NCBI RefSeq assembly: GCF_019320115.1 | Contig: NC_089583.1 | Coordinates: forward strand, 81,361,928-81,425,927 | Length of the DNA stretch: 64,000 nt | Origin: Miscanthus floridulus | Taxonomy: Eukaryota; Streptophyta; Magnoliopsida; Poales; Poaceae | Reading direction: 5' to 3' | Part shown: piece by piece, positions 7,331 to 49,635 of the stretch | Layout of the letters: each line of letters opens with the position of its first letter | Numbering within the stretch: the stretch's first letter is position 1 | Position numbers and translations under genes: made by a program | Notes under the pieces: model-generated | The model's database searches: none | What the model was told of the DNA's origin: nothing | What the model saw: only the letters and a program-made list of their open reading frames with translations

Positions 7331-8262
7331 TTACATCATCAGACATTACTCTACCAGTATCTGATGCAACCACTGAAATCATATATCTTGCTAGCTGAGA
7401 CATATCATTGCATCCAATCTCATGTTGTGGTTAAGTCGGACCCCTCCCCCCAAGTTTTTGAGGTAGTATGATGTGGAAAATCAAATTCAACCACTCAGAT
7501 AAGGTGACAACCTCTAGTCACATATCCCACCATTTGCTACGTCGACCTTAAGCGGTTCCTGATTGATGGTGGGAGCATACTCAACATTCTATTTGTCAAG
7601 ATTTTGAATGACATATGTAGTGTCACAACCTAATGGTCATTTCAAATTAAAACTTTGCAAACCCCCCAAACTTCAACACCTGACCATCACCTCCTAATGC
7701 AAAGATGTGGACCTAGCTAATTCTCAAGAACCTCTCCTGGCATCGAACCTCAACTCTCTTGAACCCTAAGACTACCTCCTTTTTCTACCTTTTCGTGTAA
7801 TGATGAAGCTCGCCAACACAATGTTTGCCTCTCAACTCACGTTAAACAAGACTTAATCTAAGAGATCATATCCCAAGATCCCTCATCATCTCTCATCTCC
7901 TAACTCTAGCTCTCACAAGAAAGTGTCCCTAAAGTAATGGATAGGATATTCGTCAAGCGAAGCATAGGTCAACTCGTAGTCAACCCAATCAACTCACTTA
8001 AATCAATGGCTCGGGAGTAAGCCCGAAGGTGACTCCCAACTCCTACCTAGGACTAATCTACTCCCCTCCATGAATAATCATAACCAATGTTAAAGCCAAC
8101 ACCTCGGTGGATATGTATTCGGCTTCGGCGATTGATAATGCAACACTATTTTGCTTCTTTGATGACTATGAAACAAGTGATCTTCCCAACAATTGACATG
8201 TGCCCGAGGTGCTCTTCCTTTCAACCTTGTATCCTGCATAATCCAAGTCGAAGTAACCAACT
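7331..8262. repeat. Direct repeat copy B
   Basis: Copy of 1-932 at an offset of 7330 bases with four differences seen. At its right side it runs without a break into Copia RNase H and reverse transcriptase on the minus strand (from about 8108 upward), whereas copy A loses that match after 932. Copy B therefore preserves the original junction between anonymous sequence and the truncated Copia element. Confidence 0.9.
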
Positions 8263-9930: not shown

Positions 9931-11867
9931 TGTAACACCCTCGGTGTTACATTGTACTGTTCTTGCTAAAACATCGCATGAGCATCATATTTATGTGCAT
10001 ATGTGTACAACATGAATTATAAATCAATGTTAGGCACTTGAAGCATTTATGCGAAACATGAAACAATGTTATGTGTCATGTCACTTGATTGAATTTTTGT
10101 CGAACAAAAATGTTATAGAACGTTTTTGCGAACGACGTTGAATCATGTGCGGTTGAGGGCAAGGATAGCTAGTTAGTCCATCAAGGGGGTCGGATTTGGG
10201 ATTCAACGCGAAACCATTCGAAGTTAAGTTGTTCCGCATAGGTTTGAAAGAAGGTCGATGAAGCCACCTTTGGCAATAATTATAGAGCAATCGGCTTAGG
10301 AAGTGGTACGATATCTTGATTCCGATCGATAGCCCAACGTACCCTCTTGTGCATCGAACAGTTGGTTTGGCCTTTGGAGCATCGTGTACAAGTTTTCAAG
10401 CTGCTTTAAAAAGCATGCATGGCACATGACTTAGCTCTGGGCGCGGTCACCACTTGGCCTGGCACCGCTGCTGGCTTGCCAGCGCACTACCACACTGGCC
10501 ATGTCCCGCTGCCACGCTGGCTACGCCCCACTACCATGCCTGTGCACGCGCATGGCCTTGCGCTATGTGCCAAGGCCATCTACCACCGTGCGTTGACAGC
10601 GGCCATCACCGCTGCTGGCCATGTCCGCCGCTGATGGCTCGCCCAAACGCGCGTGCGCCGATGCACCGGCCGCATCCGCCCTGCCACCGTGAAGGCACAC
10701 GCATGCAGGGTCTTAGTGCGGCTGCCTTGTCTGCCTATTGGCACTCGTTGGCGTGCGGGTCATAGCACCATGGCTGACATGCTATGCTCGGGCCACCGAC
10801 CAAACTCTACCAAGCCATGCCCTGCTTTGGCCGAAGGTGCGCCGGGTCTCGCGCTACACGCCGCCAGCGGCCATGCACAGCATTGCTCCACTGACTCGCC
10901 TTGGATTCTCGCGTGAAGGAAGATAGCCTGCTCCACCATCACCTCCGCATCACTCGCACTGTGTTTTCCTTGTCTGGCACTGCCGCTGCGACGCCGTACC
11001 AAGCCTCATTGGCTTGCAGCCATGGTCATGCGGATAGTCGCCTGGAGCACATCCTGCTGTCCCCCATTGTGGTGTGTGTTTGTTTGTTGCATTGACATCC
11101 ACAGCTGGACCGAGCCAAGCCATGCCGGGACCCCCTGCCTCCGCTGTAGCCATGACCGGCGGGACCTCCTTCATTCAATTCACCGTGACCACAGCAATCT
11201 AATCAAATTTGTCGCTGCCTCGGCTCCATTGGGTAACTGGCCACACAACCGTCCCCACCTCACTGCCTGTGTCCCCGTGCTATGCCCCAATTTTGAAATG
11301 TTGCGCCATCGGGTCCTTAAGACTGGGGTGGTCTGCGTCGTCGGCTAACCATGCGACCAAGGCATCTCGGTCCAATTCCTTGCATTACTAGCCTCTCCTC
11401 TAGTTGGGCATCACCATGCTCACCATAGTCTAAGCCCTACCACCGTGTAGCAGTCCCTGGCACAGCCGTGCCACCGCCGTGCACCGCCGCACCACCTTGC
11501 GTGCACGCGGCCAGCTCACCTTGGGCTTTCTCTGGCCAGACCATTAACGCGAAGGTATCCGTGGGTAGTCCCTTGAGCTCTCTAGCTTAGTTGCTCGCTC
11601 CATCTTCGCTATCACTCATGGGAACGCGCCTGCCTTTATAGGGAAGGGACCACCGCTGGGGAGGGGGCTTGGCATGGCGCCCCTATTCGCCATGAAGCCT
11701 CTAGTCGCTGCGCTTTGTCCCCAAGGTAATCATCGGCCCCTTAGTTAGGCCTTAGTGGCTCGGGTGACGCCGGTGTGGCCGCCCGGTGCCTGCGCCGTCG
11801 CGCTAGTGCGCGCACGGGTGCTGGGGGACGTCACCGCAGTAAAGAAGGAGAAAGGGGAGGGTGCAGC

Positions 11868-11875
11868 TATAAAAG
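11868..11875 (+). promoter_or_regulatory. TATA box of chromovirus 5' LTR
   Basis: The octamer tataaaag sits within the LTR at the junction between its GC-rich and AT-rich parts, a good position for the U3/R boundary. In the 3' LTR the same site reads tgtaaaag (37485-37492), so the core box is lost there. Confidence 0.65.
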
Positions 11876-12656
11876 CGTAGACTAGCAAAATAGTGCCTTA
11901 GAGCTCGTTGTAAATACGTAGTAGTTCAGAGGTGTCCTTGCATATTTGCGTCGTGCGTGTGCCTCTCCTGTCGCGGGCCGTTGGTTGGCTAGGCCGCGCA
12001 CGCACGTGGGCCGTGCTGCACTGGAGCACGCGTCGCTCCATTGTGGGCCGAGCCAGTGTGAGTTGGGCCGAGGGGTAGGATTCGGTTTCCTTAATTTCTA
12101 GAAGAATAGAACTGTTTATTTATTTTAGTTATGAGTCGAACTTCGATAAATCGTAGTAAATTGCGTAGTTGTCCAAAAATAGTGAGACTAATTTTGTTAG
12201 GTTCACAAAAATACCATCTACTTGATAGTATAGTTGGATAGCAGTTAGCTATGACGAGTATTAGGTCATAAATTCAAAACTAGAGAGCTAATATTAGGTA
12301 GGTTAATACTTGTAGGAATATTTGTTGATAATTGGTGATAGATATAGCCACAAAAATTTTACAGTAGGTCCATTAGGTTGTCATGTACTTGCTATAAATT
12401 TTGTAGCCTTAGAATGAGTTGTTAAATAAAATAGCTATTACTCTTGTTTTATTGTATCTAGATTAAATCGGCATTAGGAGTAAGAATAACCATAGTTGTT
12501 ATAATAATAATGAATGTCATACCTCAAACTTATCGGTAACAATAGATGACTTATCACCATGGTCGATATCATTAGCTTAGGAGTTAAATCGATGTACTTT
12601 TACTTTAAGAATTTCTGTTGCCGTATTATTAAATATTGCATCATCATTTCATGTAG

Positions 12657-12824
12657 ATCATGAACTGGTAGACTTCGTGCCTGTCAGTGAGCTAGAGTAC
12701 GACAAGGTGATTGAGGAGTATGAGGAGGAGATCCTCATGCAGGAGGAAGCCTAGGAGCATGTTGGTGCTGACCCTGCTGACCCGGCGTCTGCCCAAGGCA
12801 AGCCCCAGAGCATAATCCATATTT
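12657..12824 (+). other. Acidic exon-like reading frame inside the LTR (second copy 38274-38440)
   Basis: After a splice-acceptor-like atttcatgtag, both LTR copies read about 55 codons in one frame without any indel: HELVDFVP, EEYEE, ILMQE, VGADPADPA. The 5' copy has one TAG (near 12751) and the 3' copy one TAA (near 38411), at different codons, so the source frame was open. A possible start is ATG within the frame only; the function is unknown. It could be a leader peptide or an exon joined to gag. Confidence 0.45.
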
Positions 12825-14127
12825 TTATGATCACTATATATATGTGATGTGCATTTAAGTTACAGGCATTTTATGGAAACTACCTGCATAAATATATCTA
12901 CCCATGAGTCCTACTAGTGCAGGTCGAGTAGCTGCTATGCTCAGGATATCGGTAGCGTGAGTAACCTGCCGTTACTCACAAATAGGTGATAAAATATGAT
13001 CACTCATGATAAAATGGTGGAAAGGAAAATGGTGACCGGGCAGGGATATGGTTTGGGTACTGGTGGGTGTAAGGGGTTGTGTCCTGTGGCCAATGGGGCA
13101 TGACTTGGTTACACTTTTTCCCTGTCCGTGTCGATTAAGAATTGGTCGTTGCAATGGACGCTAGGCAAGTCACAGATCTATTGTCCCGAGCGCATACTTG
13201 GGTATGGGCGTAGGGAAGACTTGTTGCTCTCTTGTCGTGGATCCGACTCTTTCTGGACCGACTGATTGGAGGCGGGGATTGTGGAGGTCCTTGCACCACA
13301 TGGAGTCTGATACTTAGGGGTGGGGGCTTGGAGTCCAAGTTTGGACAGGGACCTAGACACCTAGGACAGGAGAGTGATGGGTTAGTCCTGCTTGTGGCTG
13401 GGGTACAAGCGGGGTGTGTGTTTTCGGGGCACCCAGCTGGGCACATTGGTTCACGAATCACCGCCGAGTCGATACGACTTGTCTTAACTCTAGCATCGTA
13501 GTAAGAACTAAAAGTTGAAAGGAGAAGACATGAAACTGATTGCTCAACTCTTGCTTGAAAGTAGAACCGGTGCTTATATCGACTGGCTGGATAATAATTT
13601 AATATGGCTTATAATAAGATATAAATAAGGACTCACTATTAGCATTGCTTTCTGCTAAAGAAAACCAGCAAACCATAAAGCCTATCATATTCCTTGGAGT
13701 CGGGAAATTATTCCCACTAGTCAGATAAGTCTTGCGAGTACATTGTGTACTCAGGGTTTATTTACCCCTGTTGCAGGTGATGCTTGAAGAGTACCTTTGT
13801 GTGGAGGATCCTTCTAGTAGGCTCAGATGGAATCCTTGCCCTTATCGCTAGTTGTTATTTTTAAAAAATTCCGCTATTTATTATTCCGCACTCTGGTATT
13901 TGGTATTGTAATAATGTACTTTTTAAGAAACTCGGATGTATGAAATGAACTGGTATTGTAACTCATTCACATTATTGGATCCTTGGGAAAAATATGGATC
14001 TTTCGGGTTCTCCCTCAGGGTGTGCTCGACGGACACCGATCACTGTAGCCTGCTTTCGGGATGCTTAGTGTCTGATGGAAGACGAGCGCCTTCGTAAGTA
14101 TGCTATTTCGGGCAGTTCTGCCATAGT

Positions 14128-14601: not shown

Positions 14602-16299
14602 ATGAATCTAAAGTCTAGACGTGGGAGCACCAGTTCTAGGGTGGCTCATGAGGGCCAGGGTGACAGTGGCTGGGCCATTGAGCATGACAGCGGGGGAGGT
14701 CAGGAGGTTCCACCTCTGGCTCCTCATCCTTTCCCACCGCCGCCACCGCCTCCGTCGATGACTCCCGTAGAGATAATGGTGGATCTGTTGGCTGCTCGTC
14801 GGGAGTTAGCTACTGCTCACCGGGAGTTAGCTACTGCTCGCCAGGAAATAGCTCGTGCCATGGACATTATGGCATAGGCTGTCGCGGGCCTCACCCGCGG
14901 AGGCCACAGGGGCAACAGTGGGAATGGGGGTGGTGCCCACTGTCCTGTGGGACAGTCCTCTTACCAGGACTTCCTCAAGACTCACCCACCCATGTTCACC
15001 CTGTCTGATGAGCCCCCAGAGGCAAAGCACTGGCTTCATACTATGGAACATAAGTTTTGGCTCCTCAGAGTGGCTGACGAGCAGAAGGTGCGCTTTGCAG
15101 CGCAACAGCTTTTGGGGTCCGCAGGTGCATGGTGGGACACCTTCTAGGCCATGGAGTTGCCGGATCATCTAGCAACCTGGTAGGAGTTCACCACCGTGTT
15201 CCAAGAGTTCTTTATCCCTGCTGGTGTCATCAACCAGAAGGTGACTGAGTTCCTGGAGCTGCGCTAGGGGAATAGGATAGTGATGGAATATGTGAGCAAG
15301 TTTAATCACTTGGCTCAGTATGCTAGCAGTCAGGTGGATACTGATGATAAGAAGAGGGAACATTTCTTTCGTGGTCTAGCTCCCCTCCTTTGGGAAAAGC
15401 TCTACACGGCGAACTATCAGACCTTTGGGGCTTTGATGAACGCCTCCATTGCTATTGAGGATTTTTAGCGGGAGTCCTAGGCTGATTGGAAGGGGAAGCG
15501 GGTGGCAGCTAGATCCTCTAGCCACCCTCACACACAGAAGATATAGGTTGTCCGGTGGGGGCCCTATCAACCATCTGGCGGGCCTTTATTTCGGCAACCC
15601 CAGCAGACTTCGCAAGCTTCCTCTACACAGTACCATGCACCTCCGTAGCAAGTGCAGCCTCAGCAGTCTTAGGGATAGCAGGTCCCACCTCATCAGGGGT
15701 TCGGGAACAAGCCAGGTGGTTGTTTCAAGTGTGGCAAAGATGGCCACTATGCCTGGGCCTGTGTCTAGAACCAGCCAGCTCAGTCGGCTCAACTGTCTGC
15801 AAATTCTAGGCTTGTCAAGAGGACCATCATCAAGAAGAAAGTGCCCAGTAGATTCGGCTAGGTGCACTTCATAGATGCTGTGCAGGTTTTGCTGCAGGAG
15901 TCGATGATGGCTGGTATGTTTACCGTCGACTCCCATCTAGCTTTGGTGATGTTCAATTCTGGTGTATCACATTCCTTTATGAGCATGGGGTTTGTAGAGC
16001 GGCACAACTTACCACTTATGGCTATACCGTATGCCTATAAGATCCGTACTGTAGGGTCACAAATGTTCATCAATACCCACATGAATATAGTAAGTTTGGT
16101 ATTAGCCACCCATACTTACCGCCTACAGTTCATGATCATGCCTAGGCAAGGCATTGATGCTATTCTTGGAATGAACTGGTTGTGGGTGTATGGGGTAGTA
16201 TTGGATATGTAGAGGAGAAGTGTGGAGTTATGGCTTCCTTCTTCTGAGGATAGGATGTCTCTTATTGTAACCTCAGAACCAGTCTTACTTGTTGCTGCC
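14602..16299 (+). pseudogene. Chromovirus gag-protease
   Basis: One frame from the ATG at 14602 carries a proline-rich N-terminus, a retrotransposon gag domain (GSAGAWWDTF), a CCHC knuckle CFKCGKDGHYAWAC (15721-15762, ligands intact), then protease. Ten or more in-frame stops are all TAG, nearly all where CAG (Gln) is expected (for example 14875, 15145, 15181). The protease active-site triplet reads NSG (15955-15963) where the family has DSG, a GAT-to-AAT change. The frame is cut at 16299 by the Tat insertion and continues in phase at 32583. It is inactive. Confidence 0.9.
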
Positions 16300-17784
16300 T
16301 GTCGGTGTTTCGTACAAGCACCGGCAAGTAAATTTGTAGTAATGCGCGTTAGGCTCAGATGGTGCGCTAAAGGACACAGGATTTATACTGGTTTGGGCGG
16401 AACGTCCCTACGTCCAGTTTGTTGCTGCTTATGTTATTAGCACCGTGAACGGTCTATAGTAAGGGATACAAACTGCCGAGAGAGAGACTGGTCCCAAGTC
16501 TCTGATGGAAGGATTGAAAAGGTGGTCAAGAGCTTTGTAGCTGCTTGAATGTGTGTATGAGTGCATTCTATTGTTCGGTCCTATTTCTTCCGTCCCCCTG
16601 ATGGAGGAAGCGCATCCCCTTTTATAGATGAAGGGGATGGCTTTACAAGGGTGAGATTCCAGGATGCGTACTCTACTTAGTCTTGTGGCTCACGTCTACC
16701 TGGCCAGGTCCTCAATTCTGATGAGTGCGAAGGAAGATAAGTGCTTAGCATGTTGTCGATGTCTCTGTATGTTAGTCACAGAACACTGCCCTGCATAGGG
16801 TATGGGCTGTAGTATGGTGGTTTTGACTTATGAGCCTCTCCCAGCCTTGCTCCGTGCGCCTTCTGGTTCCCACGATTCCTTGTTGGGAGAATTCGGGGTC
16901 GGGGTCTGGTGTAGTGCCGTGGCCAAGGCCTTCCGACTGGGAGGACCTGAGGGGTCGGGAAGCGGGCGCCGCCCCCTCGGGTCCACAGCGTGGTGACGGA
17001 ATATCCATCATCCGTGGAGATAGCAAATCCATTCTTGGAGCGTAGCGGTTGTCGTATATCTTTGTTGCGTTCCGTGTCCCAGAGCTGAAGGCGGCGCCTA
17101 CAACTCTATAGGGTGAGGTGCTCGCACCTGTAATACCTTTTGGGCTCTGCGGCGCCCCAAAGGTTCTAAAGCATCAGTCCTGTCGTTCCCTGACAGTCTT
17201 TTTCCTGCCAGGGCATAGGGTATGGTCGTTGGAGTCATGGTTGACCTGAACGTCTTGTCTCGTCCTATACCCATCATTATGAGGGATAGATATCGATCAG
17301 GGCGAGGCTCGTTCTGGGCCGTCGGGTGAGACGGAGACCAATCCTTATCTCTTGGGCGAGACTAAACCTATCCCTCCGGGATCGGACGAGGCGGAATCCA
17401 TCCCTTAGCCTTCGGGTGAGACCGAGCCCGCCCTATATGCGTCGGGCAAGACGGAGTTTAGCCTTGAGCCTTTGGGTGAGGCAGGGTTATCCCACAAAGG
17501 CGTCGGGTGAGGCTGACCCTGCCCCTCCGGGATCGGGCGAGACGGAACTCATCCCTTAGCCCTCGGGCGAGACCGAGCCCGCCCTCAAGGCATCGGGCGA
17601 GACGGAGTTTATCCCTCGGCCCTCGGCGAGACCGAGCCCGTCCCAAAGGTGTCGGGCGAGGCGGAACCGAACTCCTGTCACTTGAACAAGGGATGACATG
17701 ATGCCTTTATGCGTCCAGAAGTTTTTCACGTTTGGTGGTTATCGGTTCCACCTCCTGGGGTACCCTGGTATTAGGTCCCCGACA
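16300..17784 (-). repeat. Tat-1 3' LTR, with CGGGCGAG tandem repeats
   Basis: 1485 bp, paired with 31092-32577. In the first 200 aligned bases I count eight differences, all transitions. The right part (about 17290-17690) is an array of imperfect repeats of roughly 30 bp built on 'tcgggcgagaccgagcccgccc'-like units; in element orientation this is at the start of U3, where such arrays often act as enhancers. A TATA box TATAAAAGG lies on the minus strand at 16626-16618. Confidence 0.92.
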
Positions 17785-18520: not shown

Positions 18521-21500
18521 ATGGAGTTGTGGGGTAGATCAAGCATCACCTCCCGGCGTCTGGAGGGCCTCGTCCGCCATGGCCTTCTTCATCCACTGTC
18601 CGCCGTCCAGGAGTGGTTGCTTCCTGGCGACGAGGGCGAGCCGGTGCCGCCTGAAGGGTATGTCATCTCTTTTGCCATCTTCCATGAGCGGGGATTCGGG
18701 GTACCCACGCATAGATTCCTTCGGGGGTTATTAGATTACTATGAGGTAGAGCTGCAGCATCTAACTCCCAATGGGATTCAGCATATGGCAGCGTTTGTTG
18801 CCCTGTGCGAGGGCTTCCTGGGGATCGATCCCCATTTTGATCTGTGGCGGTATTTCTTTAGTATTAGTCTGTCGAGAAGGAAGATAGGGGGGAAAGAAAT
18901 GAACGCGCTGATGGGATGTGCCAGTATTCATCTGCGCCATACCCGGTCGAAGGGTTACCCATACATGCGTCTGGCGACATCCAACAAGGGATGGCACTCG
19001 CAATGGTTTTATGTTAAGGATGATGCGAGTGCCACCCTACCGAAGTATACCGGGCGTCTTATTGTGGATGCCCCGGAGTCGTGGGGCTGGGGCGTCCAGT
19101 CCAGAGACAAGAAGCACATCACCGACCTTCTTTCCGCCCTCCAAGCCCTAAAGGGCCGAGGTGTAAAGGGGACAGGGATCATCGGTGCCTACCATGCTAG
19201 GAGGGTGGCACCCCTAATGGCGCGTGCGCTTCCCCTGCATCAGATGATGCCTGGGATATCGTACGAGGGGACGGTGCTTGTTGATGAGGCGCTCCCTTAC
19301 TCGGAAGTGGCGCAGCGCATCAAGGAGGCGACGGAGCTGACGAAGGATTCTGCTGGCAGTGTCCTCGATATCGTGTATCCGGTGCCCGGGCATCCTCCAA
19401 TGCGGCCGGAGCCTGGGTTCTTCGAATTCGTAAGCCCTCTTCTCCCGCACTCTTTTCTTTCTCCTGAATCTCCCTTTTTTAACACTTGCTTTTGTAATGT
19501 TGGGGCTAGCCGAGGGGGCTAGTCTTCAAGGATAGTCCGGCCCCGCTGCCGAAGGACAAGGTTGTGGTGGCGGCGAATCGACTCGCTACCGAGCGGGACA
19601 AGAAAGCAAAGGAGGAGATGAAGAAGGCGAAACGACTGAAGCAGGAGGCATGAGATCGGGGAGAGGACGTGAGCAGTGAGGATGACGACGATGATGATGA
19701 TGACGATGATGACGACGAGGTAGCCGTCGACGTGGATTGGGGCGTCCTAGAGGATGAGGAAACACTGACAAGTGGCCACCCACCCGTGCAGGGGCCCTTC
19801 GCTTTTCACGCAGAGGGAAGTGAATCAATGAGGTCAGTGGAGGCCGACGAGTCCGCCGCTTCGCACGGCGTGCCAGCCAAGGATCGGTGGATGGGGGAGG
19901 CCAGGCTTGCTGCCGCCGACCCTGAGGCGATCATGGAGGGGGGTGGCACCGGAGCCACGCCCGGCTTTGGTGCCACGCCTTGTGAGGTGATGGAGGGGAG
20001 CAGCTCCGGTGCTGCGCCCCGTGGGACGATGGAGGGGGACAGCTCCGGTGCCACGCCCGACGAGACGATGGAAGGGAGTGACTCCGGCGCTGCGCCTGAC
20101 GAGATGAACCCCCCTGCCCCGGAGCAGGGGGCAGGCATGAAACGGTCCCGTCCGGACGAGTCAGGGCAGGGATCTGGGGATCCGTCCCCAAAACGCTTTC
20201 GCTGGCCGAGGACGTCAACGTAAGCTTTTGACTCCTCTGTTTTCATCTTTTTTCCATTTTTATTTTGACTTAACGGTTATTACCTTTGTGTAGGTTCTTG
20301 CGGACGGGTCACCCCCTGGGGCTGGCGCCCAAGAAGAGTCTCACCCTTCAAGCGGGACAAATGGCGTCGCCTGGAGTCACCCCTGTTTCGGGCAGGAGTG
20401 GTGCCGACGTTGGGGCCGCGTTGGCCGAACCGACAGCGTCCATGGTGGCTCCCACGCCCGCGGAGGTTACTGAGCGAGCGGTTTCTTCCATGGCGGGCGT
20501 GGAAAAGCCGGCCGAGGACCGCATACCGCCGGTGAAGGCGATCGTGACTGCGCCAAGCCAGGATTAGCCGGGCGCGGTCGTGGTGGCACCCGAGGGCGTG
20601 GTTCAATCCGCGCCGCCAGGCGCCCATGTGGATCCGCCCATGGCGCGCGAAGCGGCCCAGACGGAGGAGGGTCTAGCCGGAGGGTCCTCGAGTGCGGCGG
20701 TGGTGCCGCACAGGGTCAGGAGGGAGCCGCCACCGACCCCTTTGTCGGGAGGAAGCCGCTCCCCTGCACGGGGGAAGCCGCCGCTCCACTGGATGGCCGC
20801 TCAGGACCCGACGTCGGCTCTTTTCTCGCTCGACGATCATTCCGAGAGCATGGAGCGGGAGGGTCTTGACATCGGGATCTCGACCATGCTGAACGCCCTG
20901 GACCAGGCCAGAGGAGCCCTCCGTGAGATCATTATCCCTACCACTCAGGTATTTTCTGGACTTTCTTCTTTCTTCATGTGTTTCTATGTTCTCGCATTTC
21001 TGATATCAGTCTTCTTCCGCCTTAGATTCTTGTTGCTCGTAGCCGGAATAAATCCCAATTCCTCCGCGAATAGAAGGTGGAGTGGGATCGCCTTTCCAAG
21101 GAGGCCCGGCTGCGAGCAGACATGGCCGCCCAGCTTGCTACTGTCTAGGAGCGGGAGGCCCAGGCGCGTCAGGATGCGGAGGAGGCGCACAGGATGTTCG
21201 AGGACCTGTCGGCGAGGTCTAAGCTGGATGGAGAGGAGATTGCCAGACTCCAAAAAGAGCAAGACGAGCTGCTGCAGAGGAATGCCACGGCCAATGAGAA
21301 GGCCGGCGAAGTCCTGAAGGAGCTGGAGATGGAGCGGGACCTCTGGCGGAAGGCCGAGAGTAGGGCCACAGCCCTCCAGCAGAAGGTGGACGAGGATGTC
21401 AAGGTGGTCCGCTCTCTCCGGGTGGAGCTTGGTGGCGCGGTGGAGGGAAGGTTGAGTGCTGAGAACGTCGCCACCAAGCTGGAGAAAGAGGCTGCCTATA

Positions 21501-21862
21501 CGCGAAGGGCCCTTCAGGCTAAGAGCGATGAGCACGATCTTCTACAAGCTGCGGTCGAGGTGGTCCTTAACGCCCTGAATGTGACGGAGCCGGTGGAGAC
21601 CAGCCCGCTCGCGGCTCGTGTCGGAGGTATCACGGCTCGGGTGGGCCAACTTGAGGAGAGTGCCTTTCACGCCGGGATTACCCAGGCCTTCACCGTCGCC
21701 CATGCCCATTATGAGAAGGAAATAAACCTAAAGGTGATGAGCGAAGGCTTTCCGTCCACCTACAAGGATGAAGAGCTGGAGGAAATGGAGAAGATGGTCG
21801 CTCCCCTTGCGAAGAACCTAGCAGACAGTCTGAAAGAAATGGTTCTCCCTCCACGGGAGTAA
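18521..21862 (+). pseudogene. Antisense intron-containing accessory gene of Tat-1 (aORF), gypsy-type-transposon domain plus coiled coil
   Basis: Four exons: 18521-19429, 19510-20219, 20294-20948 and 21026-21862. Introns of 80, 74 and 77 bp all have GT...AG ends and all keep the frame, giving about 1036 codons. Exon 1 (303 codons) encodes a globular domain (GLLHPL, FAIFHERGFG, FLRGLLDYYEVELQHL, GFLGIDPHFDLWRYFF) that resembles the plant 'putative gypsy-type transposon' Pfam domain. Exon 2 has a poly-Asp run and short repeats of the type EGxxSGAxP; exon 4 is a long coiled coil ending MVLPPRE. Four nonsense codons (19651 TGA, 20565, 21071 and 21146 TAG) fit CGA-to-TGA and CAG-to-TAG. It lies on the strand opposite to gag-pol. 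Function unknown. A longer upstream frame from 18260 exists, but 18521 matches the domain start. Confidence 0.82.
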
Positions 21863-23906: not shown

Positions 23907-24326
23907 ATATCGAGCCGGAGGTTATCCAACGTAGATGAGATGGTGCGCGTGGCCCTTGCTGAGGAGTCGCTACTGCTGAAGGAAAGGAGGCATCGGTGGG
24001 CGTCGTACGTTGTTGACTGCGCCGTCGTTCGCTGTGCTCCTCCCTTGGCGGGAGGCGTTTTCTGCCCATACGCCGTTGTCAGGGTTATGGCTGGGGATGA
24101 TGGCATAGTCCCCAGACGTCATGGCAGTGGCGTCGCTGCTGGGGTCGCGGCTGACGACGATGGCGTAGTCCCCGGACGCTCCGGCGGAGGCGTCGCTGTC
24201 GGGGTCGCGGCTGACGACGATGGCGTAGTCCCCGGACACTCTGGCGGAGGCGTCGTAGATGGTGGTGCCTTCGAGGATCCAGCGAAGATGTCGCCGATGG
24301 AGAGCGTGGCACGGCGACTGCAGTAG
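23907..24326 (+). pseudogene. Rudimentary second copy of the antisense accessory-gene start
   Basis: The first 30 or so codons (SNVDEMV, EESLLLKERRHRW) align with the N-terminus of the accessory gene in the second Tat element (SNVDKEV, EKGLLPLKEVVYW). The start codon of that gene, ATG, is ATA here (23907-23909). After about 40 codons the homology ends and a 20-residue tandem repeat (DDDGVVPGRSGGG core) follows. Tat-1 therefore carries a complete accessory gene near the LTR and a remnant of another near pol, the latter closer to the Tat-2 type. Confidence 0.6.
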
Positions 24327-24949: not shown

Positions 24950-27900
24950 TTAAGGATAGAAACGATGTAGCTGCTCAATGTTCCAGGCGTTGGTGAAGAC
25001 CTCGCCTTTGATGGTTTTCAACCGGTAGGCGCCTGGGCAAAGTATTTCCGCGACGATGTAGGGCCCTTCCCAGGGCGGGGAGAGTTTGTGGCGATCCTTG
25101 TTGCTCTGCACAAGACGAAGGACGAGGTCTCCAACGTTGAAGGCTCGACCCCGCACCCGTCGGCTGTGGTACCACCGTAACGCTTGCTGGTACTTAGCTG
25201 AACGGAGGAGGGCGATGTCACAGGCCTCATCCAGCTGGTCCATGGCGTCTTGGTGAGATGCCTCGGCTCCCTGTTCGTCATATGCTCTGATTCTTGGTGC
25301 TCCATAGTCGAGGTCCATCGGGAGAACGGCCTCGGAACCGTAGATCATGAAGAAGGGTGTGTAGCCGGTGGCCCGGCTAGGAGTCGTCCTTAGGCTCCAG
25401 AGCACAGCCGGGAGCTTAGTGAGCCAACGCGCGCCGAACTTGTTCAACCGGTTGAAAATTCTGGGTTTGAGGCCTTGAAGAAGCATGCCGTTTGCGCGCT
25501 TGACCTGTCCGTTCGTCCGGGGGTGCGCGACGGCTGCCCAATCGATTCGGATGTGTTGTTCATCACAGAAACGAATGAATTTCCTACCGGTGAACTGCGT
25601 GCCGTTGTCTATGATGATGGAGTTCGGTACTCCAAAGCGATGGATGATGTCGAGAAAGAACAACACAGCTTGCTCGAATTTGATTGTGGATATTGGCCGA
25701 GCTTCAATCCATTTTCTGAACTTGTCTATGGTGACAAGCAGGTGGGTAAAGCCCCCGGGCGCCTTTTTAAGTGGCCCAACCAGGTCAAGCCCCCAGACCA
25801 CGAAGGGCCACGTGATGGGGATCATCTGGAGAGCCTGGGTCGGGAGGTGTGTTTGCCGAGCATAGTATTGGCACCCTTCGTAGGTGCGTACAACTTGTTC
25901 GGCATCGGCTACTGCGGTGGGCCAATAGAAACCCTGTCGGAATGCCTTCCCAACCAAGGTTCTTGGCGCGGCATGGTGACCGCATGCTCCACCATGGATG
26001 TCGCTCAGTAGGAGTTTTCCCTGTTCGCCAGGGATACAAAGTTGCAGAATTCCGATGTGACTTCGTTTGTAGAGTTCGCCCTCTACAAGAACAAAGGATT
26101 TGGCGTGTCGCGCGAGCCGTCGGGCTTCTGTCTTGTCGGTTGGTAGTACGTCGTGGAGGAGATAGTCGAGGTAAAGCGTTCTCCAGTCATTGGGAGGGTC
26201 GGACTCCATTGCTGGGTCTTCTTCAAGCTCCATGACCTCAGGGTCAGGAGGAACAGTTGGCGGATCGGCCTTGGGGGTCGGACTAGAAGGGCCATCATCG
26301 GCTTGTTCTGACCCCGCGTAGCGTATCGAGGGTTTGTGTTGGTCACTGGTGAAGACGCCTGTTGGAACTGGCTCTCGGCTGGATGCTGCTTTTGCGAGTG
26401 TGTCGGCCGCTTCGTTGAGGCCCCTGGGGATATGATTGAGTTCGAGGCCGTCGAATTTGTCCTCCAGACGTCGGACCTCTTGACAGTACGCCTCCATCTT
26501 GGTATTGTGGCATCCTGATTCTTTCATGACCTGGTTGACGATCAGCTGAGAGTCGCCCCTGACGTTGAGGCATCGGATGCCCAGCTCGATGGCGATTCGT
26601 AGGCCGTTGATGAGCGCTTCGTATTCTGCAGTATTGTTTGATGAGGGAAAATGAAGCCGAACCATGTACCTCATGTGCACCCCGAGGGGGGATACAAAGA
26701 CTAGTCCTGCTCCGGTGCCCTTCTTCATCAGCGATCCGTCGAAGTACATTATCCAGTATTCTTGATCGACGGCTGCTGGTGGCATCTGGACCTCGGTCCA
26801 CTCTACGATGAAGTCAGCTAGTGCCTGAGATTTGATCGCCGTTCGGGGGACATAAGAAATGCCCTGATCCATCAGCTCGAGTGCCCACTTTGCGGTTCTT
26901 CCCGTAGCGTCATGGCTACGAACGACCTCGCCGAGGGGGAACGACGTCACTACTGTCATGGGGTGTGACTCGAAGTAGTGGCGTAGCTTCCTTTTAGTGA
27001 TGAGGACGGTGTAGAGGAGTTTCTGGATCTGGGAGTAGCGGGTTTTGGAGTCGGATAGCACCTCGCTGATGAAATATATAGGGCGCTGCACCTTGAAGGC
27101 GTGCCCCTCTTCCTCTCGCTCTACTATTAAGGCGGAACTAACCACCTGGGTGGTGGCCGATATATACAGTAGGAGAGATTCTCCGTCGCATGGAGGAACT
27201 AGGACCGGCGGCTTAGTTAAAAATCATTTAACCATGTCAAGCGCCTCCTGAGCCTCAGCTGTCCACTCGAAGCAGTCAGTTTTCTTTAGGAGTCGATAAA
27301 GGGGGAGTCCCCGTTCGCCGAGGCGTGAAATGAATCGGCTGAGGGCGGCAAGGCACCCGGTGATCCGCTGAACCCCTTTATGTTTTGGATCGGGCCCATC
27401 CTCGTGATGGCTGATATCTTCTCTGGGTTGGCTTCGATGCCACGCTCGGAGACGATGAAGCCGAGCAGCATGCCCCTCGGGACCCCGAAAACACATTTTT
27501 CGGGATTGAGCTTGATGCCGTTCGCCTGGAGTTTCGCAAAGGTGCGTTCAAGGTCGGTGACAAGGTGGTCAGCCCGCTTGGATTTGACTACGATGTTGTC
27601 GACATAGGCCTCAACGGTTCGCCCGATGAGGTCTCCGAAGCAACTAAGCATACAGCGCTGGTACGTTGCCCCAGCGTTTTTCAGACCAAACGGCATTGAA
27701 ACGTAGCAAAATAATCCGAAGGGCGTGATAAAAGATGTCGCGAGCTGGTCGGACTCTTTCATCACGATTTGATGGTAGCCTGAGTATGCGTCCAGGAAAC
27801 AGAGGGTTTCGCACCCCGAGGTGGAATCGACTATTTGGTCTATTCGTGGCAAAGGAAATGGATCCTTTGGACACGCTTTGTTGAGGCCAGTATAATCAAC

Positions 27901-28188
27901 ACACATTCTCCATTTCCCGCTCTTTTTCTAGACAAGAACAGGATTTGCTAACCACTCTGGGTGGTATACTTCCTTAATGAATCCTGCAGCCAGTAGTTTG
28001 GCTATCTCCTCGCCGATGGCCCTACGTTTCTCCTCGTCGAAGCGGCGCAGGCGTTGTTTCATCGGCTTGGAGCCCAGGAGGATTTGGAGAGTATGCTCGG
28101 CGACCTCCCTCGGGATGCCCGGCATATCTAAGGGTTTCCACACAAAGGTGTCCTTGTTGGCGCGGAGGAAGTCGACGAGCGCGCTTTC
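24950..28188 (-). pseudogene. Tat-1 pol: reverse transcriptase, RNase H, archaeal-type RNase H, integrase
   Basis: Domains in order on the minus strand: reverse transcriptase (CVDYTGLNKACPKD, FLDAYSGYHQI, FGLKNAGATYQ), Gypsy RNase H, a second RNase H (YFDGS, NTAEYEALINGL, VRGDSQLIV), and integrase (GLDLVGPL, IIIDNGTQF), ending WNIEQLHRFYP at 24950. Breaks: TAG at about 28189 (CAG expected), TAG near 27929, a frameshift near 27372, and TGA near 27224. The reverse-transcriptase box reads YVDN (AAC at 27597-27595) where the family has YVDD, and the third integrase catalytic residue, Glu, is Lys (AAG at 25501-25499). The final 731 codons are open. Inactive in replication on its own. Confidence 0.92.
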
Positions 28189-31044
28189 CTATGCGGAGGA
28201 GAGCGCGGTCCCGATTCGGACTTTTTTACCCTCGGAGCTACTGGGATCCAAGAGGACGTCCCTGGAGCCCTCTGCCGATTCGAACGATCTAGACGACTTC
28301 TTTGCGTCGGGTGTCCCTTCAATGACCTCCTCCCTGAGGGTGTCGAGTTCTTCGGATGCGATGACCGCGGATGCGTGTCCGCAGCATTCGACCTCGCACT
28401 CGTAAGCGCGCTGGAAGGAGGTGCCGATGGTGATGATCCCACGGGGGCCCAGCATCTTCAGCTTTAGGTATGTGTAATTGGGTACGGCCATGAACTTCGC
28501 GTAACATGGTCGCCCCAGAATGGCGTGGAAAGTCCCCGGGAACCCCACTACATCGAAGGTGAGGGTCTCGGTCCGGTAATTGGATCGATCCCCAAAAGTG
28601 ACGGGCAGGTCAATCTGCCCTAGTGGCATGGCTTGCCTTCCAGGCATGACGCCATGGAAAGGTGCTCGGACGGGATGGAGGTGCGTTCGGTCGACACCCA
28701 TCTCGTCAAGCGTCTTGGTGTACATGATGTTGAGGCCACTGCCCCCATCCATCAATACCTTGGTGAGCCGTTTTGGACCGACGATTGGGTCAACGACAAG
28801 CGGATACCTTCCCGGGTGTGGGACGACATCCGGATGGTCGGTCCGGTCGAAGGTTATGGCGGATTTCGACCACCGGAGAAAAGCTGGCGTGGCCGGTCCA
28901 GCGGTATAGACTTCTCGACGTGCGACCCTCTTGCGGTGCCTGTAGTCGTAGGCCGTTGATCCTCTGAAGATCATGAGGGCACCGGTCGGAGTTGGGAAGG
29001 TGTCATCCTTCTCCTCCGTGTCGTTAGTGGTGGGAACAGGCTCCTTCCCCTGCTCCTCCTTGTTCAGGCCCCCGGCCAAGTATTTGCGCATAAGGCCGCA
29101 TTCCTTGTATAGGTGCTTGGCCGGGAAGGCGTGGTTTGGGCATGGCCCCTCGAGCATTTTCTCAAAGTGGTTCGAAATGCCCTCCGCGGGCTTCCGGCCA
29201 CCCTTGCGGTCGGCAGCAGCCACGAGTGAGTTGTCGCGCCGTTGCTTCTTATTTTTCCCTTTGGCGGGACGGTTGGAGGCGCCTTCGCTGGCGTCCTCGT
29301 CCCGCCTTGTCTTTCCGTCAGAGCGATCAAAGATGGCTCCGACCGCCTCTTCTCCAGAGGCGTGACTGGTGGCGATGTCCAGGAGTTCCTTGGTAGTTCG
29401 CGGGCCCCTGCGTCCTAGCTTGTGGACCAGGGATTCGCAGGTCGTTCCGGACAGAAAGGCTCCTATCACGTCGACGTCGGCGACGTTCGGGAGCTCATTG
29501 CACTGTCGGGAAAAGCGCCGAATGTACCCGCGGAGGGTTTCATCGGCCTTCTGACGGCAGTTCTTGAGGTCCCATGGGTTTCCAGGGTGTTTGTACGTGC
29601 CCTGGAAATTACCCACGAAGATCTCAGTCAGATCCGCCCAACTCTGAATAGCATTGGACGGTAGGTGCTCCAGCCATGCTCGTGCCGAGTCGGCCAAGAA
29701 CAGCGGGAGATTGCGAATAATGAAGTTATCATCACTCGCACCACCGGCCTGACATGCAAGCCGATAGTCTTCGAGCCAAAGCCTGGGGTTTGTTTCGCCA
29801 GAATATTTAGGAATGTTCGTAGGCGGTCGATACCTTAGAGGGAACGCAGCGTTGAGGATGTGCCGGCCAAAGGCCTGAGGGCCTGGCAGGACGGGGCTCG
29901 GGCTTCGGTCCTCATTGCTGTCGTAGCGCCCGCCACATCGGGGATGATAGCCGCGGCGCGCTGCTTCTCCCTCGTCACCGTGGGCATGTCTCCGGGCGTC
30001 GATGATGCTGCATATGTCGCGGCCACGGCCGAGGCGTTGATGTATAGGGACGACGGAGGGCTGCCCGCCGGCTGGAGGTGTTTGGTGTACGGATGCGTCC
30101 TTGGTGGGACGCACTGAGAGCGTGTGATGGCTGGTGTCGGGTTCACGTCGTTGAGACAACGAACTTTCCACCTGCTGCGCTGCTGCACGCTCTAGCAACG
30201 TGCAAATCTCCCGATAAGCGCGTCGATCCTCGGACGTCGCGGCCTCCGGGAGGCCATGCAGCAAGGCGGTTGCTGCGGCGATGTTCTGGCTGGCTCATGT
30301 AAAGTGAGGAAAGGCCCCATCGTCGATGAGGATCCTTTGATGTATGGTGCGGGCTGTGGCGCACGCGCGCCCCCCGTCTTTGTGGCGTTCAATCTCGCGA
30401 TTGATGTCCGCGTATTCCCGTGCGAGCCCTTGCCCGACCTCATCGATCTCTTCCTGACGAGCCCTTAGCTGCTCCATCCTCAGGTGAGATGGGGCTGTCC
30501 CCTCTTCCCTAGATCTGCTGTCAGGATTGTTTGTAGGGGTGGCCTCTTCCCTGGAGGCGCTTTCGACATGACCCTCGGGGGTCTACGTCATGTAGCATTC
30601 CCGGGAAGGGTGGTGGCTCTCCCTACTAGAATCTGAGCTGGAGAGCGATACAGGCTCCTCGTTGAGGAGCTCATAGAGGGTCTCCGTATCCCGCTCAATC
30701 GCCCCTACGAACTCGATGTCCGTGGGTGATTGAACCACACGTAGCGCCAAAAGGCGGCCAGCGATCGCCGCAGCGTTGCGGAGACCGAATGGAGACGCTG
30801 TCGGGGCGCTCCATCCAGACCCTTCCAGACACATGGTGGCATTGTGAGAGGCCTCCTTGGGTGACGGGACTCCCTGGGAGTTGCCCGGTGGGCCCTCAAG
30901 CCTGAGACGGCTGAGGTTGATGGAAGGGGGAGATGGGGTGGCTGAGTCAGTCAGCGCCAGCCCTCCTCCTAATGTGATGATGAAATCCAGGTCGCCGAAA
31001 CGCACGTGTGCGCCCAGGGCCCAGGTGATTGCGTGGGTGGCCAT
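28189..31044 (-). pseudogene. Tat-1 gag-protease
   Basis: The frame opens at the ATG at 31044, shortly after the primer-binding site. An N-terminal leader (FGDLDFI) is followed by a gag domain (AFPLRYRPPTNIPKYSGE, GNFQGTYKHPG) near 29400-29850, a basic region, and protease with DGGSGLNIMY intact near 28730. Two nonsense codons interrupt it: TAG at about 30583, and TGA at about 30298 where CGA would be expected. The stretch 30264-28189 is open for 691 codons. It encodes the structural protein of the particle. Confidence 0.9.
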
Positions 31045-31091: not shown

Positions 31092-32577
31092 TGTCGGTGT
31101 TTCATACAAGCACCGGCAAGTAAATTTGTAGTAATGTGCGTTAGGCTCGGATGGTGCGCTAAAGGACACAGGATTTATACTGGTTCGGGCGGAACGTCCC
31201 TACGTCCAGTTTGTTGCTGCTTGTGTTATTAGCACCGTGAATGGTCTATAGTAAGGGATACAAACTGCCGAGAGAGGGACTAGTCCCAAGTCTCTGATGG
31301 AAGGATTGAAAAGGTGGTCAAGAGCTTCGTAGCTGCTTGAATGTGTGTATGAGTGCGTTCTATTGTTCAGTCCTATTTCTTCTGTCCCCCTGATGGAGGA
31401 AGCGCATCCCCTTTTATAGATGAAGGGGATGGCTTTACAAGGGTGAGATTCCAGGATGCATACTCTACTTAGTCTTGTGGCTCACGTCTACCTGGCCAGG
31501 TCCTCAATTCTGATGAGTGCGAAGGAAGATAAGTGCTTAGCATGTTGTCGATGTCCCTGTATGTTAGTCACAGAACACTGCCCTGTGCAGGGTATGGGCT
31601 ATAGTACGGTGGTTTTGACTTATGAGCCTCTCCCAGCCTTGCTCCGTGCGCCTTCTGGTTCCCATGATTCCTTGTTGGGAGAATTCGGGGTCGGGGTCCG
31701 GTGTAGCGCCGTGGCCAAGGCCTTCCGACTGGGAGGACCTGAGGGGTCGGGAAGCGGGCGCCGCCCCCTCGGGTCCACAGCGTGGTGACAGAATATCCGT
31801 CGTCCATGGAGATAGCAAATCTGTTCTTGGAGCATAGCGGTTGTCATATATCTTCGTTGGGTTCCATGTCCCAGAGCTGAAGGCGGCGCCTACAACTCTA
31901 CAGGGTGAGGTGCTCGCACCTGTAATACCTTTTGGGCTCTGCGGCACCCCGAAGGGTCTAAAGCATCAGTCCTGTCGTTCCCTGGCAGTCTTTTTCCTAC
32001 CAGGGCGCAGGGTATGGTCGTTGGAGTCATGGTTGACCCAAACGTCTTGTCTCGTCCTGTACCCATCATTATGAGGGATAGATATCGATCAGGGCGAGGC
32101 TCGTTCTGGGCCATCGGGTGAGATGGAGACCAATCCTTATCTCTTGGGCGAGACTAAACCTATCCCTCCGGGATCGGGCGAGGCGGAATCCATCCCTTAG
32201 CCTTCGGGCGAGACCAAGCCCGCCCTATAGGCATCGGGCGAGACGAAGTTTAGCCTTGAGCCTTTGGGCGAGGTAGGGTTATCCCACAAAGGCGTCGGGT
32301 GAGGCTGACCCTGCCCCTCCGGGATCGGGCGAGACAGAACTCATCCCTTAGCCCTCGGGCGAGACCGAGCCCGCCCTCAAGGCGTCAGGCGAGACGGAGT
32401 TTATCCCTCCGCCCTCGGGCGAGACCGAGCCCGTCCCAAAGGTGTTGGGTGAGGCAGAACTGAACTCCTGTCACTCGAACAAGGGATGACATGACGCCTT
32501 TATGCGTCCAGAAGTTTTTCACATTTGGTGGTTATCGGTTCCACCTCCTGGGGTACCCTGGTATTAGGTCCCCGACA
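31092..32577 (-). repeat. Tat-1 5' LTR
   Basis: 1486 bp pair of 16300-17784, with the same repeat array (about 32100-32470) and the TATA box TATAAAAGG on the minus strand at 31418-31410. In minus orientation it begins TGTCGGGG and ends CACCGACA, and the TSD ctgcc follows on the plus strand at 32578-32582. Transcription of the element would start here and run toward lower coordinates. Confidence 0.93.
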
Positions 32578-32582
32578 CTGCC

Positions 32583-35469
32583 CATGCTGAAGCTGCTCCT
32601 GATCTTACCTCCATTCCGGTAGTATGTGAGTTCCCGGATGTTTTCCCTGAAGATCTTCCTAGGTTGCCACCGGACCATGAGGTAGAATTCTCCATTGAGC
32701 TAGAGCCCGGTACTGCTCCTATCTCTAGATGCCCGTACCACATGACTCCAAGGGAACTAGCAGAAATGAAGAAGCAACTGGAAGAGTTGATGGACAAAGG
32801 TTTCATCCGTCTGAGTTCTTCACCATGGGGTTGCCCAGCCATTTTTGAAGAAAAAGGATGGTACTCTGAGGATGTGTGTGGATTACCGCCCCCTTAATGC
32901 GGTAATAGTTAAGAACAAGTATCCTTTGCCCTGCATAGATACTTTGTTCGACCAATTAGCGGGTGCCAAGGTGTTCTCGAAGATTGATCTCCGATCAGGC
33001 TATTATCATATCAAGATCAGGCCACATGATATACCAAAGATAGCTTTCTCTACTAGGTATGGGTTGTAGGAGTACCTAGTGATGTCGTTTGGTCTCACCA
33101 ACGCTCCTGCCTTCTTCATGTACCTAATGAATTCAGTTTTCATGCCGGAGCTGGATAAGTTTGTGGTGGTTTTCATTGATGACATCCTGATCTATTCCAA
33201 GAATGATGAAGAGCATGCCCGACACCTCTAAATAGTACTTACTCGACTAAGGGAGCACAAGATGTATGCTAAGTTTAGCAAGTGCACGTTTTGGTTAGAT
33301 CAAGTGCAGTTTTTGCGGCATGTGTTGACACCTAAAGGTGTTTCTGTAGATCCTAGCAAGGTGCAAGATGTATTGGATTGGAAGTCTCCCAAGTTTGTGC
33401 ATCAGATTTGTTAGTTCCTAGGTCTAGCTGGGTACTATTGGCATTTTATTCCTGATTTCTCCAAGATAGCCTAGCCCATGACCAAGATGCTCCATAAAGA
33501 AGCTAAGTTTAATTGGGGCCTAGCTTGTGAAGAAGCTTTTCAATCTCTGAAGACTTTTCTAACCATTGCTCCTATGTTGGCTCAACCAGATATTGATAGG
33601 CCCTTTGATGTATACTGTGATGCCTCAAAGACAGGGTTGGGGTGTGTGCTTATGCAAGATGGGCGTGTGATAGCTTATGCTTCATGCCAACTGAAGAAGC
33701 ACGAGGTGAATTACCCCACTCATGACTTAGAGTTGGCCGCTGTGGTCCACGCTCTAAAGATTTGGAGGCACTATCTGTTGGGCAACAAAGTACATATTTT
33801 CACTGATCACAAGAGCCTCAATTATATTTTTACTCAGTCTGAGCTGAACATGAGGCAAAGGAGATGGTTAGAGTTGATAGAGGATTATAATTTGGAAGTC
33901 CATTATCACCTAGGAAAGGCCAATGTTGTAGCAAATGCCTTGAGCCATAAGTCACATCAGGTTGAGGAAATACCTTTGTCTCTCAACCACACAGAGGTGC
34001 TAGCTCATATTGCATTGACCTTAGAATTGCTGGAGCAGATTATTCGGAAATAGAAGGAAGACCCTGAAGAGATTCCTCACATCAGGAAATTGATGGCCAA
34101 AGGTCGTGGCCCTCACTTTAGCATTGATGAGCAAGGGGTTGTGAGATACAAGGATAGACTGGTGGTTCCATCCAATGAAGAGCTTAAAAGAAAAATTTTG
34201 AATGAAGCTCACCATTCAAAATTGTCTATTCATCCTGGCAGTAACAAGATGTATCACGATCTACATCACTTGTACTGGTGGTCCAACATGAAGCAGGACA
34301 TCACCCGGTATGTCGCCGAATGCGACACATGTGGTAGAGTTAAGGCAGATCATCTGCATACCCTAGGATATTTGCAGCCCTTGCCCATTCCTGTTTGGAA
34401 GTGGGAAGATATTTCTATGGATTTCATTGTGGGTTTACCCCGCACAACCAAGGGTTATAACTCTATTTGGGTCATTGTGGATTGCCTCACCAAGTCCGCT
34501 CACTTCCTCCTAGTAAATTCTAAATACTCTGCCAGATAGTATGTCGAGTTGTACCTAGACCGGATTGTGACTCTACATAGAGTTCCACTGACTATCATCT
34601 CTGATAGGGGATTAGTTTTTGTCTCTTGCTTCTAGGAACAACTCTAGGAGTGTCTTGGGACAAGTCTCCTCCTCAGCTCAGCTTATCACCCCTAGACTGA
34701 CGGCCAAACCGAGAGGGTAAATCAAGTGCTTGAAGATATGTTGAGAGCCTGTGCCATTTCCTTCCCTAAGAAGTGGGAGGCCTGCTTGAAGCTAGCAAAA
34801 TTCTCTTACAATAATAGCTACCAAGAAAGCATCCGCATGGCACCCTTTGAGGCTCTATATGGAAGGAAGTTTAGGATGCCACTCAACTAGGTTAAAGTGG
34901 GAGATTGTGGATACTTTGGGCCAAAATTCATCGAGGAAGCTCAGGAGCAAGTCATTCTTATTCAGAGTCATTTGAAGGCAGCTCAGAGTTAGCAGAAAGC
35001 ATATGCCGACAAGTGAAGAAGGCCTTTGGAATTTGAAGTTGGGGATTATGTGTACCTCAAGGTGTCTCCTATGAGGGGAGTGCATCAGTTTGGTATCCAT
35101 GGTAAGCTAGCTCCCTAGTATGTGGGTCCTTACAGAATCTTGAAGTGGTGTAACCCAGTTGCTTACCGTCTACAACTTCTAGATATTCTCTCTGTAGTAC
35201 ACGATGTGTTCCATGTATCACAACTGAAGAAATGTTTACGGGTTCTCGATGAAGCGGTGGAAATTGAAGGACTTCCTCTCTAGCCAGATTTGACTTATGT
35301 GGAGCACCCTGTAAAAATACTGGATGAGAAAGAAAGAGTCACCAGAAATAGTGTGGTAAAGTTCTACAAAGTGCAATGGCAAAACCATTCTGAAGATGAA
35401 GCCACCTGGGAGCAAGAGAGTTACTTGTTGAAGCATTATCCCCATCTTCTCTCTGGCGCTGGTAGTTAG
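32583..35469 (+). pseudogene. Chromovirus reverse transcriptase, RNase H, integrase and chromodomain
   Basis: The frame resumes exactly in phase with 16299. Reverse transcriptase has FIDD intact (33172-33183), then RNase H ([20 protein letters not shown]), integrase zinc finger (HHSKL ... CDTCGRVKA) and core with all three acidic residues (SMDFIVGLP, SDRG, GQTERVNQ), and a C-terminal chromodomain (YKVQWQNHSEDEATWE) ending with TAG at 35469. Chromodomains steer integration to heterochromatin. Breaks: a one-base insertion in a T-run near 32840, and about 16 stops, mostly TAG where CAG or TGG is expected. Dead, but its catalytic residues survive better than those of its neighbours. Confidence 0.9.
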
Positions 35470-38451: not shown

Positions 38452-38483
<32 letters not shown>

Positions 38484-48300: not shown

Positions 48301-48466
48301 TCTAGATACTAAGGGCTTAGTTGAGTATCTGTTTGAAAACAGAGAGGTGCATTGTAGCTATTAAATCTAATGGTGACTGACCATGATAATGAGGCACGCT
48401 CTATGCATTGATCTATGATGGAATGGGAAAAAGATAAAGAAAGTTGAGTTTAAGTCATAAGGTGAG

Positions 48467-48900: not shown

Positions 48901-49199
48901 GAGTCCTTAGATGCGGCCTGGATGCATGGGTTTAGTGGCCTACTACACATTCGTTGCGGCGCCTGGGTTATGGCCAGCCGGCCGATAGTAGCGACGGGCA
49001 GCAGGTTTTCCTCACCATGTCCGATAAACTGAGTCAATATAGCTATGAAAGCGTGTCATCGTGCAAGCAGATGACAGTTGCACGTACTCATTTGTTGCTA
49101 GGTCCTGATGTAGTGGCGGCCAAACATAGGCATCTAGGTGTGGATTCCGCTCATGATCCAAGCTATGCTGAAGCCGTGGGTAGGGCCTAGCCAATGACG

Positions 49200-49615: not shown

Positions 49616-49616
49616 G

Positions 49617-49635
49617 TTGGCGCCGTCCATGGGCA
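49617..49635 (+). other. Primer-binding site of Tat-2
   Basis: TTGGCGCCGTCCATGGGCA one base after the LTR end. It resembles the tRNA-Asp or tRNA-Arg primed sites of Tat and Athila elements; the tRNA is not assigned. Confidence 0.7.

What the first reader, a model, noticed from the sequence alone, without database searches (positions are those of the whole stretch)
18521..21862. An intron-bearing gene carried antisense inside a Tat retrotransposon
Between pol and the 3' LTR, on the opposite strand, lies a four-exon gene of about 1036 codons. All three introns are 74-80 bp, have GT...AG ends, and keep the frame exactly (exon phases 0, 2 and 0). A sense-strand gene would lose its introns in each retrotransposition cycle; antisense ones are invisible to splicing of the genomic RNA, so the element can carry a normal spliced gene as cargo. 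Extra genes in Tat elements are known, but this spliced antisense arrangement with a domain-plus-coiled-coil product of unknown function deserves attention. It could act on chromatin, on host silencing (including via double-stranded RNA with pol transcripts), or on particle assembly.
Basis: partly seen in the sequence, partly recalled or inferred. Interest (0 to 1): 0.9.

Follow-up and report, generated by a model that had tools for sequence, protein, structure and literature searches.

The report
Spliced antisense gene in Retand retrotransposon
A plant jumping gene carries on its opposite strand a four-exon gene whose predicted introns and protein are conserved among related copies in the same genome; the gene is a known kind, its spliced layout was not described in the papers I could read.

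Summary
This copy is decayed: 4 in-frame stops, against 31 in shuffles. Exon 1 carries Pfam Transposase_28 (PF04195). This is the antisense TRP28 gene already reported in 97% of recently active Retand clusters (PMC11963269), so the cargo is known.

In the texts I could read I found no statement that this gene is spliced, or that the separate antisense ORFs are exons of one gene. The window's own genome supports it. In 30 aligned copies the start, stop and nearly all splice dinucleotides are kept. Shared variants lean to synonymous in the spliced frame (p = 1.5e-8) but not in unspliced frames; exon 4 alone is not significant. Two related families keep the four-exon order. A distant family (32% identity) has introns 1 and 2 in the same phases.

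No RNA was examined, so splicing is inferred. Best reading: an old nuclear regulator gene whose antisense orientation protects its introns. Function is unproven.

The parts
31092..32577 (-). 5' LTR of the Retand element (TGTC...GACA)
   Evidence: LTR pair 95.4% identical; ends and target duplication CTGCC at 32578-32582
16300..17784 (-). 3' LTR of the Retand element
   Evidence: target duplication CTGCC at 16295-16299
28189..30264 (-). gag ORF (Retrotrans_gag PF03732)
   Evidence: E 9.2e-14
27286..27906 (-). reverse transcriptase ORF fragment (RVT_1)
   Evidence: E 3.7e-24
24950..27145 (-). RNase H - additional RNase H (RVT_3) - integrase ORF
   Evidence: the order RH, aRH, INT
18521..19429 (+). 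Antisense gene, exon 1: ATG and TRP28 domain PF04195 at residues 49-115; 303 codons, no stop
   Evidence: shared-versus-singleton test p = 2e-5
19430..19509 (+). Intron 1, 80 bp, GT-AG, phase 0
   Evidence: GT 29 of 30 and AG 30 of 30 copies
19510..20219 (+). Exon 2: acidic linker, 39-bp in-frame repeat at 19989-20104, one stop (19651)
   Evidence: p = 9e-3
20220..20293 (+). Intron 2, 74 bp, GT-AG, phase 2
   Evidence: GT 28 of 30 (plus 1 GC) and AG 30 of 30 copies
20294..20948 (+). Exon 3: low-complexity linker, one stop (20565)
   Evidence: p = 1.7e-3
20949..21025 (+). Intron 3, 77 bp, GT-AG, phase 0
   Evidence: GT 30 of 30 and AG 30 of 30 copies
21026..21862 (+). Exon 4: charged, heptad-periodic likely coiled coil, two internal stops (21071, 21146), terminal TAA 21860-21862
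   Evidence: selection test not significant on its own, p = 0.54

Best explanation
This is the antisense TRP28 accessory gene of a Retand retrotransposon, and it is one spliced gene: TRP28 domain (exon 1), disordered linker (exons 2-3) and a likely coiled coil (exon 4). Proposed mechanism: RNA polymerase II transcribes the integrated copy antisense from a promoter near the 3' LTR; the spliceosome removes three short T-rich introns; the protein returns to the nucleus, pairs through its coiled coil and binds DNA or chromatin through TRP28, regulating the element's transcription or integration. The introns last because the RNA that is reverse-transcribed is the other strand, on which they are not introns. 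Shown here: gene structure, conserved splice sites, selection on the spliced frame as a whole, the same intron places in related families. Inferred: transcription, splicing, nuclear role, DNA binding. Confidence is about 0.9 for one spliced gene and about 0.4 for the nuclear-regulator role.
For: Frame and introns. 30 copies keep start, stop and splice sites; indel events per kb are 9.3 in exons, 51.9 in introns, 30.5 upstream and 45.2 downstream; indels shared by two or more copies: 2 in 3111 exon nt, 2 in 231 intron nt, 11 in 721 nt upstream, 14 in 1438 nt downstream. Spliced frame: N+stop:S 330:163 for singletons, 169:188 for variants in three or more copies, odds 2.25, p = 1.5e-8; unspliced continuous frames p = 0.17, 0.77, 0.50. 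Third codon positions carry most shared variants in every exon (77 of 303 against 23 and 21 in exon 1). dN/dS to the L030 family 0.20, 0.31, 0.54, 0.42 for exons 1-4. Four exons in the same order in the L030 and L023 families. Introns 1 and 2 in phases 0 and 2 in L001, 32% identical. From papers: antisense promoter and nuclear protein of Grande gene23 (PMC7264820), predicted DNA binding of TRP28 (PMC11963269).
Against: No transcript was seen. Only 2 of 30 copies have a spliced frame open from ATG to stop with the six splice dinucleotides. Of 41 internal stop positions, 19 occur in two or more copies, so damaged copies may have spread or the same sites mutate repeatedly. Exon 4 is not significant alone (p = 0.54). 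Within the family, introns 1 and 2 are no more variable than exons in substitutions (mean pairwise identity 95.7 and 95.2% against 93.4-95.2%). The TATA-like motif near 18374 is shared by only 3 of 30 copies at two bases. The antisense frame that shares wobble positions scores alike (odds 2.26), though it holds stops. Exon 1 gave no usable fold (mean pLDDT 37.5).
Confidence: 0.7

Rival explanations
1. Separate antisense ORFs: TRP28 and coiled-coil proteins are made from unspliced or separate RNAs, and the gaps between them only look like introns.
For: PMC11963269 describes single ORFs and mentions no intron in its text (word search). No RNA evidence of splicing here.
Against: ORFs 2-4 have no conserved start of their own that was needed for the frame; GT and AG kept in 29, 28, 30 and 30, 30, 30 of 30 copies; the continuous unspliced frames show no selection signal, the spliced one does; the same intron phases 0 and 2 in a family 32% identical.
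Confidence: 0.08
2. The antisense RNA matters as RNA (dsRNA, siRNA, interference with the genomic RNA) and the protein frame is dead.
For: PMC7264820 proposes dsRNA silencing from antisense transcripts. Most copies are broken (28 of 30).
Against: Selection on codons and on splice sites needs a protein, at least in the lineages that spread. The two roles can coexist.
Confidence: 0.1
3. Recent capture of an ordinary intron-bearing host gene in antisense, as passenger cargo.
For: Normal plant-like introns; gene capture by LTR elements is known (PMC7264820).
Against: 150 of 150 scored PF04195 candidates match in this genome (first look 28133), and TRP28 is antisense in Retand of many flowering plants (PMC11963269). 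An ancient capture is not excluded.
Confidence: 0.03
4. Chance: a GC-rich stretch with few stops and random GT/AG pairs.
For: GC-rich exons (AT 33-43%).
Against: 4 stops against 31.4 expected, minimum 16 of 500 shuffles; PF04195 E 2.9e-23; conservation in 30 copies.
Confidence: 0.01

Closest known systems
Antisense TRP28 ORFs of Retand elements (Vicient 2025, PMC11963269, parts 1-3 of 5 read)
   Same: Same domain PF04195, same antisense place between pol and 3' LTR; Smc-like (coiled-coil type) antisense ORFs also listed there
   Different: Described as separate ORFs found with ORF Finder; no intron in the main text. Here one four-exon gene.
gene23 of maize Grande (Gomez-Orte 2013; known to me only through PMC7264820)
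   Same: Antisense accessory gene in the 3' internal region with its own promoter and a nuclear protein
   Different: Not compared by sequence here; the paper itself was not held, so whether it reports introns is unknown to me
HTLV-1 HBZ (PMC1459196, abstract)
   Same: Works alike: antisense, spliced, polyadenylated transcript of an integrated retroelement, whose protein regulates transcription
   Different: Unrelated element; starts in the 3' LTR with alternative splicing. No sequence comparison made.
Sense introns of Ogre (PMC6317226, passage)
   Same: An intron in a Tat-lineage plant element
   Different: Ogre's intron lies in the sense strand between gag-protease and RT and is only partly spliced

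Membership tests
Tat lineage (Ogre/Retand) of Ty3/gypsy | Additional RNase H between RNase H and integrase | tested here: met
   RT_RNaseH 6-92, RVT_3 135-254, rve 447-542 in ORF 24950-27145; rule from PMC6317226
Retand | RT phylogeny groups with Retand | not tested
   No reference RT set was at hand
Retand | Antisense ORF with TRP28 between pol and 3' LTR | tested here: met
   PF04195 E 2.9e-23, + strand 18521-19429, element on - strand
Retand | LTR 315-1194 bp, internal region 7.4-12.9 kb in the 2025 clusters | tested here: not met
   LTR about 1.49 kb and internal region about 13.3 kb (from coordinates): slightly longer than all clusters listed in PMC11963269 Table 1. A range in a survey, not a definition.
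Spliced protein-coding gene | Conserved splice sites and selection on the spliced frame | tested here: met
   exon 4 alone not significant
Spliced protein-coding gene | Spliced transcript seen | not testable with these tools
   No RNA data; intron-less genomic copies could not be searched (pattern search unanswered)
DNA-binding regulator | Binding to DNA or nuclear localisation | not testable with these tools
   Only predictions and the Grande protein in the papers

The most novel reading that the evidence does not exclude
The antisense ORFs of Retand are exons of one ancient spliced gene, taken up once with its introns and kept by selection. Because its introns survive only in antisense, and only nuclear transcription of an integrated copy can give the spliced mRNA, the protein is made only after integration: antisense splicing works as a built-in timer that separates the regulatory from the replicative phase of the element.
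Probability: 0.35. Interest if true: 0.8.

Novelty: new variant of a known kind. Interest (0 to 1): 0.6.

Why it matters
LTR retrotransposons are expected to shed introns. An accessory gene that keeps introns at the same places in families with 32-67% identity in exon 1 shows how antisense orientation lets a retroelement keep a normal eukaryotic gene. It would give the unexplained antisense ORFs of Retand (TRP28, Smc-like) one product and change what should be cloned and tested: the spliced protein of about 1000 residues and not single ORFs. A 2020 review asked that antisense and spliced transcripts be looked for (PMC7264820); this gives exact junctions to look for.

Tried and rejected
Scans with exon 1 found no relative in viral contigs (12 pattern stretches, none confirmed) or genome contigs (148, none confirmed). 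No PDB relative at E <= 1. Exon 1 folded alone gave no usable model (mean pLDDT 37.5), so no fold search was made; the exon 4 ORF gave long helices with mean pLDDT 55. The L001-L004 group first looked like host genes (highest PF04195 scores; no pol match in the 8.2 and 9.3 kb stretches), but L001, L002 and L004 are 98-99% identical at dispersed places, which fits a young mobile family better; its copy number could not be counted. A promoter claim was dropped because the TATA-like motif is not conserved. That filing also said ten paper searches; nine were answered.

Full report
The element. Two LTRs at 16300-17784 and 31092-32577 (BLAST pieces 95.4% identical; K2P 0.048) are flanked by the same five bases, CTGCC. 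Gag, RT and RNase H - additional RNase H - integrase lie on the minus strand between 30264 and 24950. That order is typical of Ogre and Retand (PMC6317226, passages), and an antisense TRP28 gene is typical of Retand (PMC11963269; parts 1-3 of 5 read, plus a word search). The RT tree was not made. The element appears to sit inside an older LTR element with LTRs at 9933-14123 and 35558-39760, 90.8% identical, whose RT and integrase pieces lie at 32872-33372 and 34273-35232.

The gene. The copy has 4 internal stops; 500 shuffles gave 31.4 on average and never fewer than 16. Exon 1 holds PF04195 (E 2.9e-23). Exon 2 is acidic (23% D+E) and holds a 39-bp in-frame repeat. A single basic cluster was found by pattern (residues 334-342). 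Exon 4 is charged with heptad periodicity over about residues 29-182.

Copies in the same genome. The window's genome is held (2.68 Gb). A DNA search scored 40 of 6176 first-look candidates and listed 41 rows. I used the 30 given as loci: the window and 29 others (for one, L050, the search match began only at base 215 of the query). Start, stop and splice sites are nearly invariant, and in these 30 copies no intron is missing (lengths 78-80, 70-75 and 70-84). Indel events per kb: 9.3 in exons, 51.9 in introns, 30.5 upstream, 45.2 downstream. Seven of 30 copies have no in-frame stop; only 2 of 30 also have the whole spliced frame and the six splice dinucleotides intact. Of 41 stop positions 19 occur in two or more copies.

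Selection. Singletons mostly arose after insertion and serve as a neutral yardstick; variants in three or more copies are enriched for changes made while the lineage was active. In the spliced frame N+stop:S is 330:163 for singletons, 133:108 for doubletons and 169:188 for variants in three or more copies (odds 2.25, p = 1.5e-8). Reading the same stretch without splicing gives p = 0.17, 0.77 and 0.50. Frames +1 and +2 lean the other way (odds 0.65 and 0.64). Of six flank frames none is significant (p 0.08 to 1.0). By exon: p = 2e-5, 9e-3, 1.7e-3 and 0.54. The antisense frame with the same wobble positions scores alike (odds 2.26), as it must, but minus-strand frames hold stops in the exons. 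The p-values treat variants as independent, which related copies and repeated C-to-T changes are not; the contrast between frames is the safer part. Introns 1 and 2 are not more variable than exons in plain substitutions; the constraint shows in indels and codon positions.

Other families. L030 (exon 1 67% identical) and L023 (59%) carry matches to all four exons in order; in L023 exons 2 and 3 match only in part (100 and 40 residues). Splice-like ends were read by eye at the gaps. dN/dS: window-L030 0.20, 0.31, 0.54, 0.42 for exons 1-4; window-L023 0.19 (exon 1) and 0.61 (exon 4). Both are decayed too. In L001 (32% identical) exons 1-3, with splice sites chosen by eye, form an open frame of 1999 nt with introns of 79 and 76 bp in phases 0 and 2; a third possible intron of 82 bp, in phase 1 where the window has 0, opens 127 more codons. 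In a mechanical scan 10 of 25 usable loci (5 of the 30 left out because the match ended early) had splice signals near the exon-1 end better than 95% of control places, where about 1 is expected; 15 did not, among them L030 and L023. The ten are not independent (L001, L002 and L004 are near-copies), and in some the best-scoring pair was not the one I would choose.

Known and new. The antisense TRP28 gene of Retand is known. I read parts 1-3 of PMC11963269, passages and one section of PMC7264820, passages of PMC6317226, PMC12786077 and PMC10606437, and the abstract of PMC1459196. Nine paper searches were answered. None of this showed introns in the gene. The 2013 Grande paper is not held; the 2011 survey was not found under the identifier I recalled; the 1997 Grande paper was not looked up. 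Priority is therefore not certain.

Function. The nuclear place and own promoter of Grande gene23, and the predicted DNA binding of TRP28, come from the papers. The coiled coil rests, of low to middling confidence. The regulator role is an inference, and the timer idea of the novel case more so.

Noticed in passing
window 24099-24255: Tandem array of 60-bp units (2.6 copies) between pol and the end of the antisense gene, of the kind reported for Retand spacers.
   Followed up: no
window 61519-62082, - strand: A second, more distant TRP28 exon 1 (36% identity) with an intron-like GT...AG stretch after it by eye; its element was not worked out.
   Followed up: partly
window 43206-58944, + strand: A second, decayed Tat-type element (gag 50566-52592, pol 53021-55942; LTR pieces 43206-44895 and 57138-58944) in which the antisense exons found no match between pol and the 3' LTR.
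   Followed up: partly
window 9933-39760: Nesting: the Retand element lies inside an older LTR element with LTRs of about 4.2 kb, 90.8% identical, against 95.4% for the Retand LTRs.
   Followed up: partly
window 1-929 and 7331-8259: A young LTR pair, 99.6% identical.
   Followed up: no
Possibly a pol-less TRP28-bearing family.
   Followed up: partly
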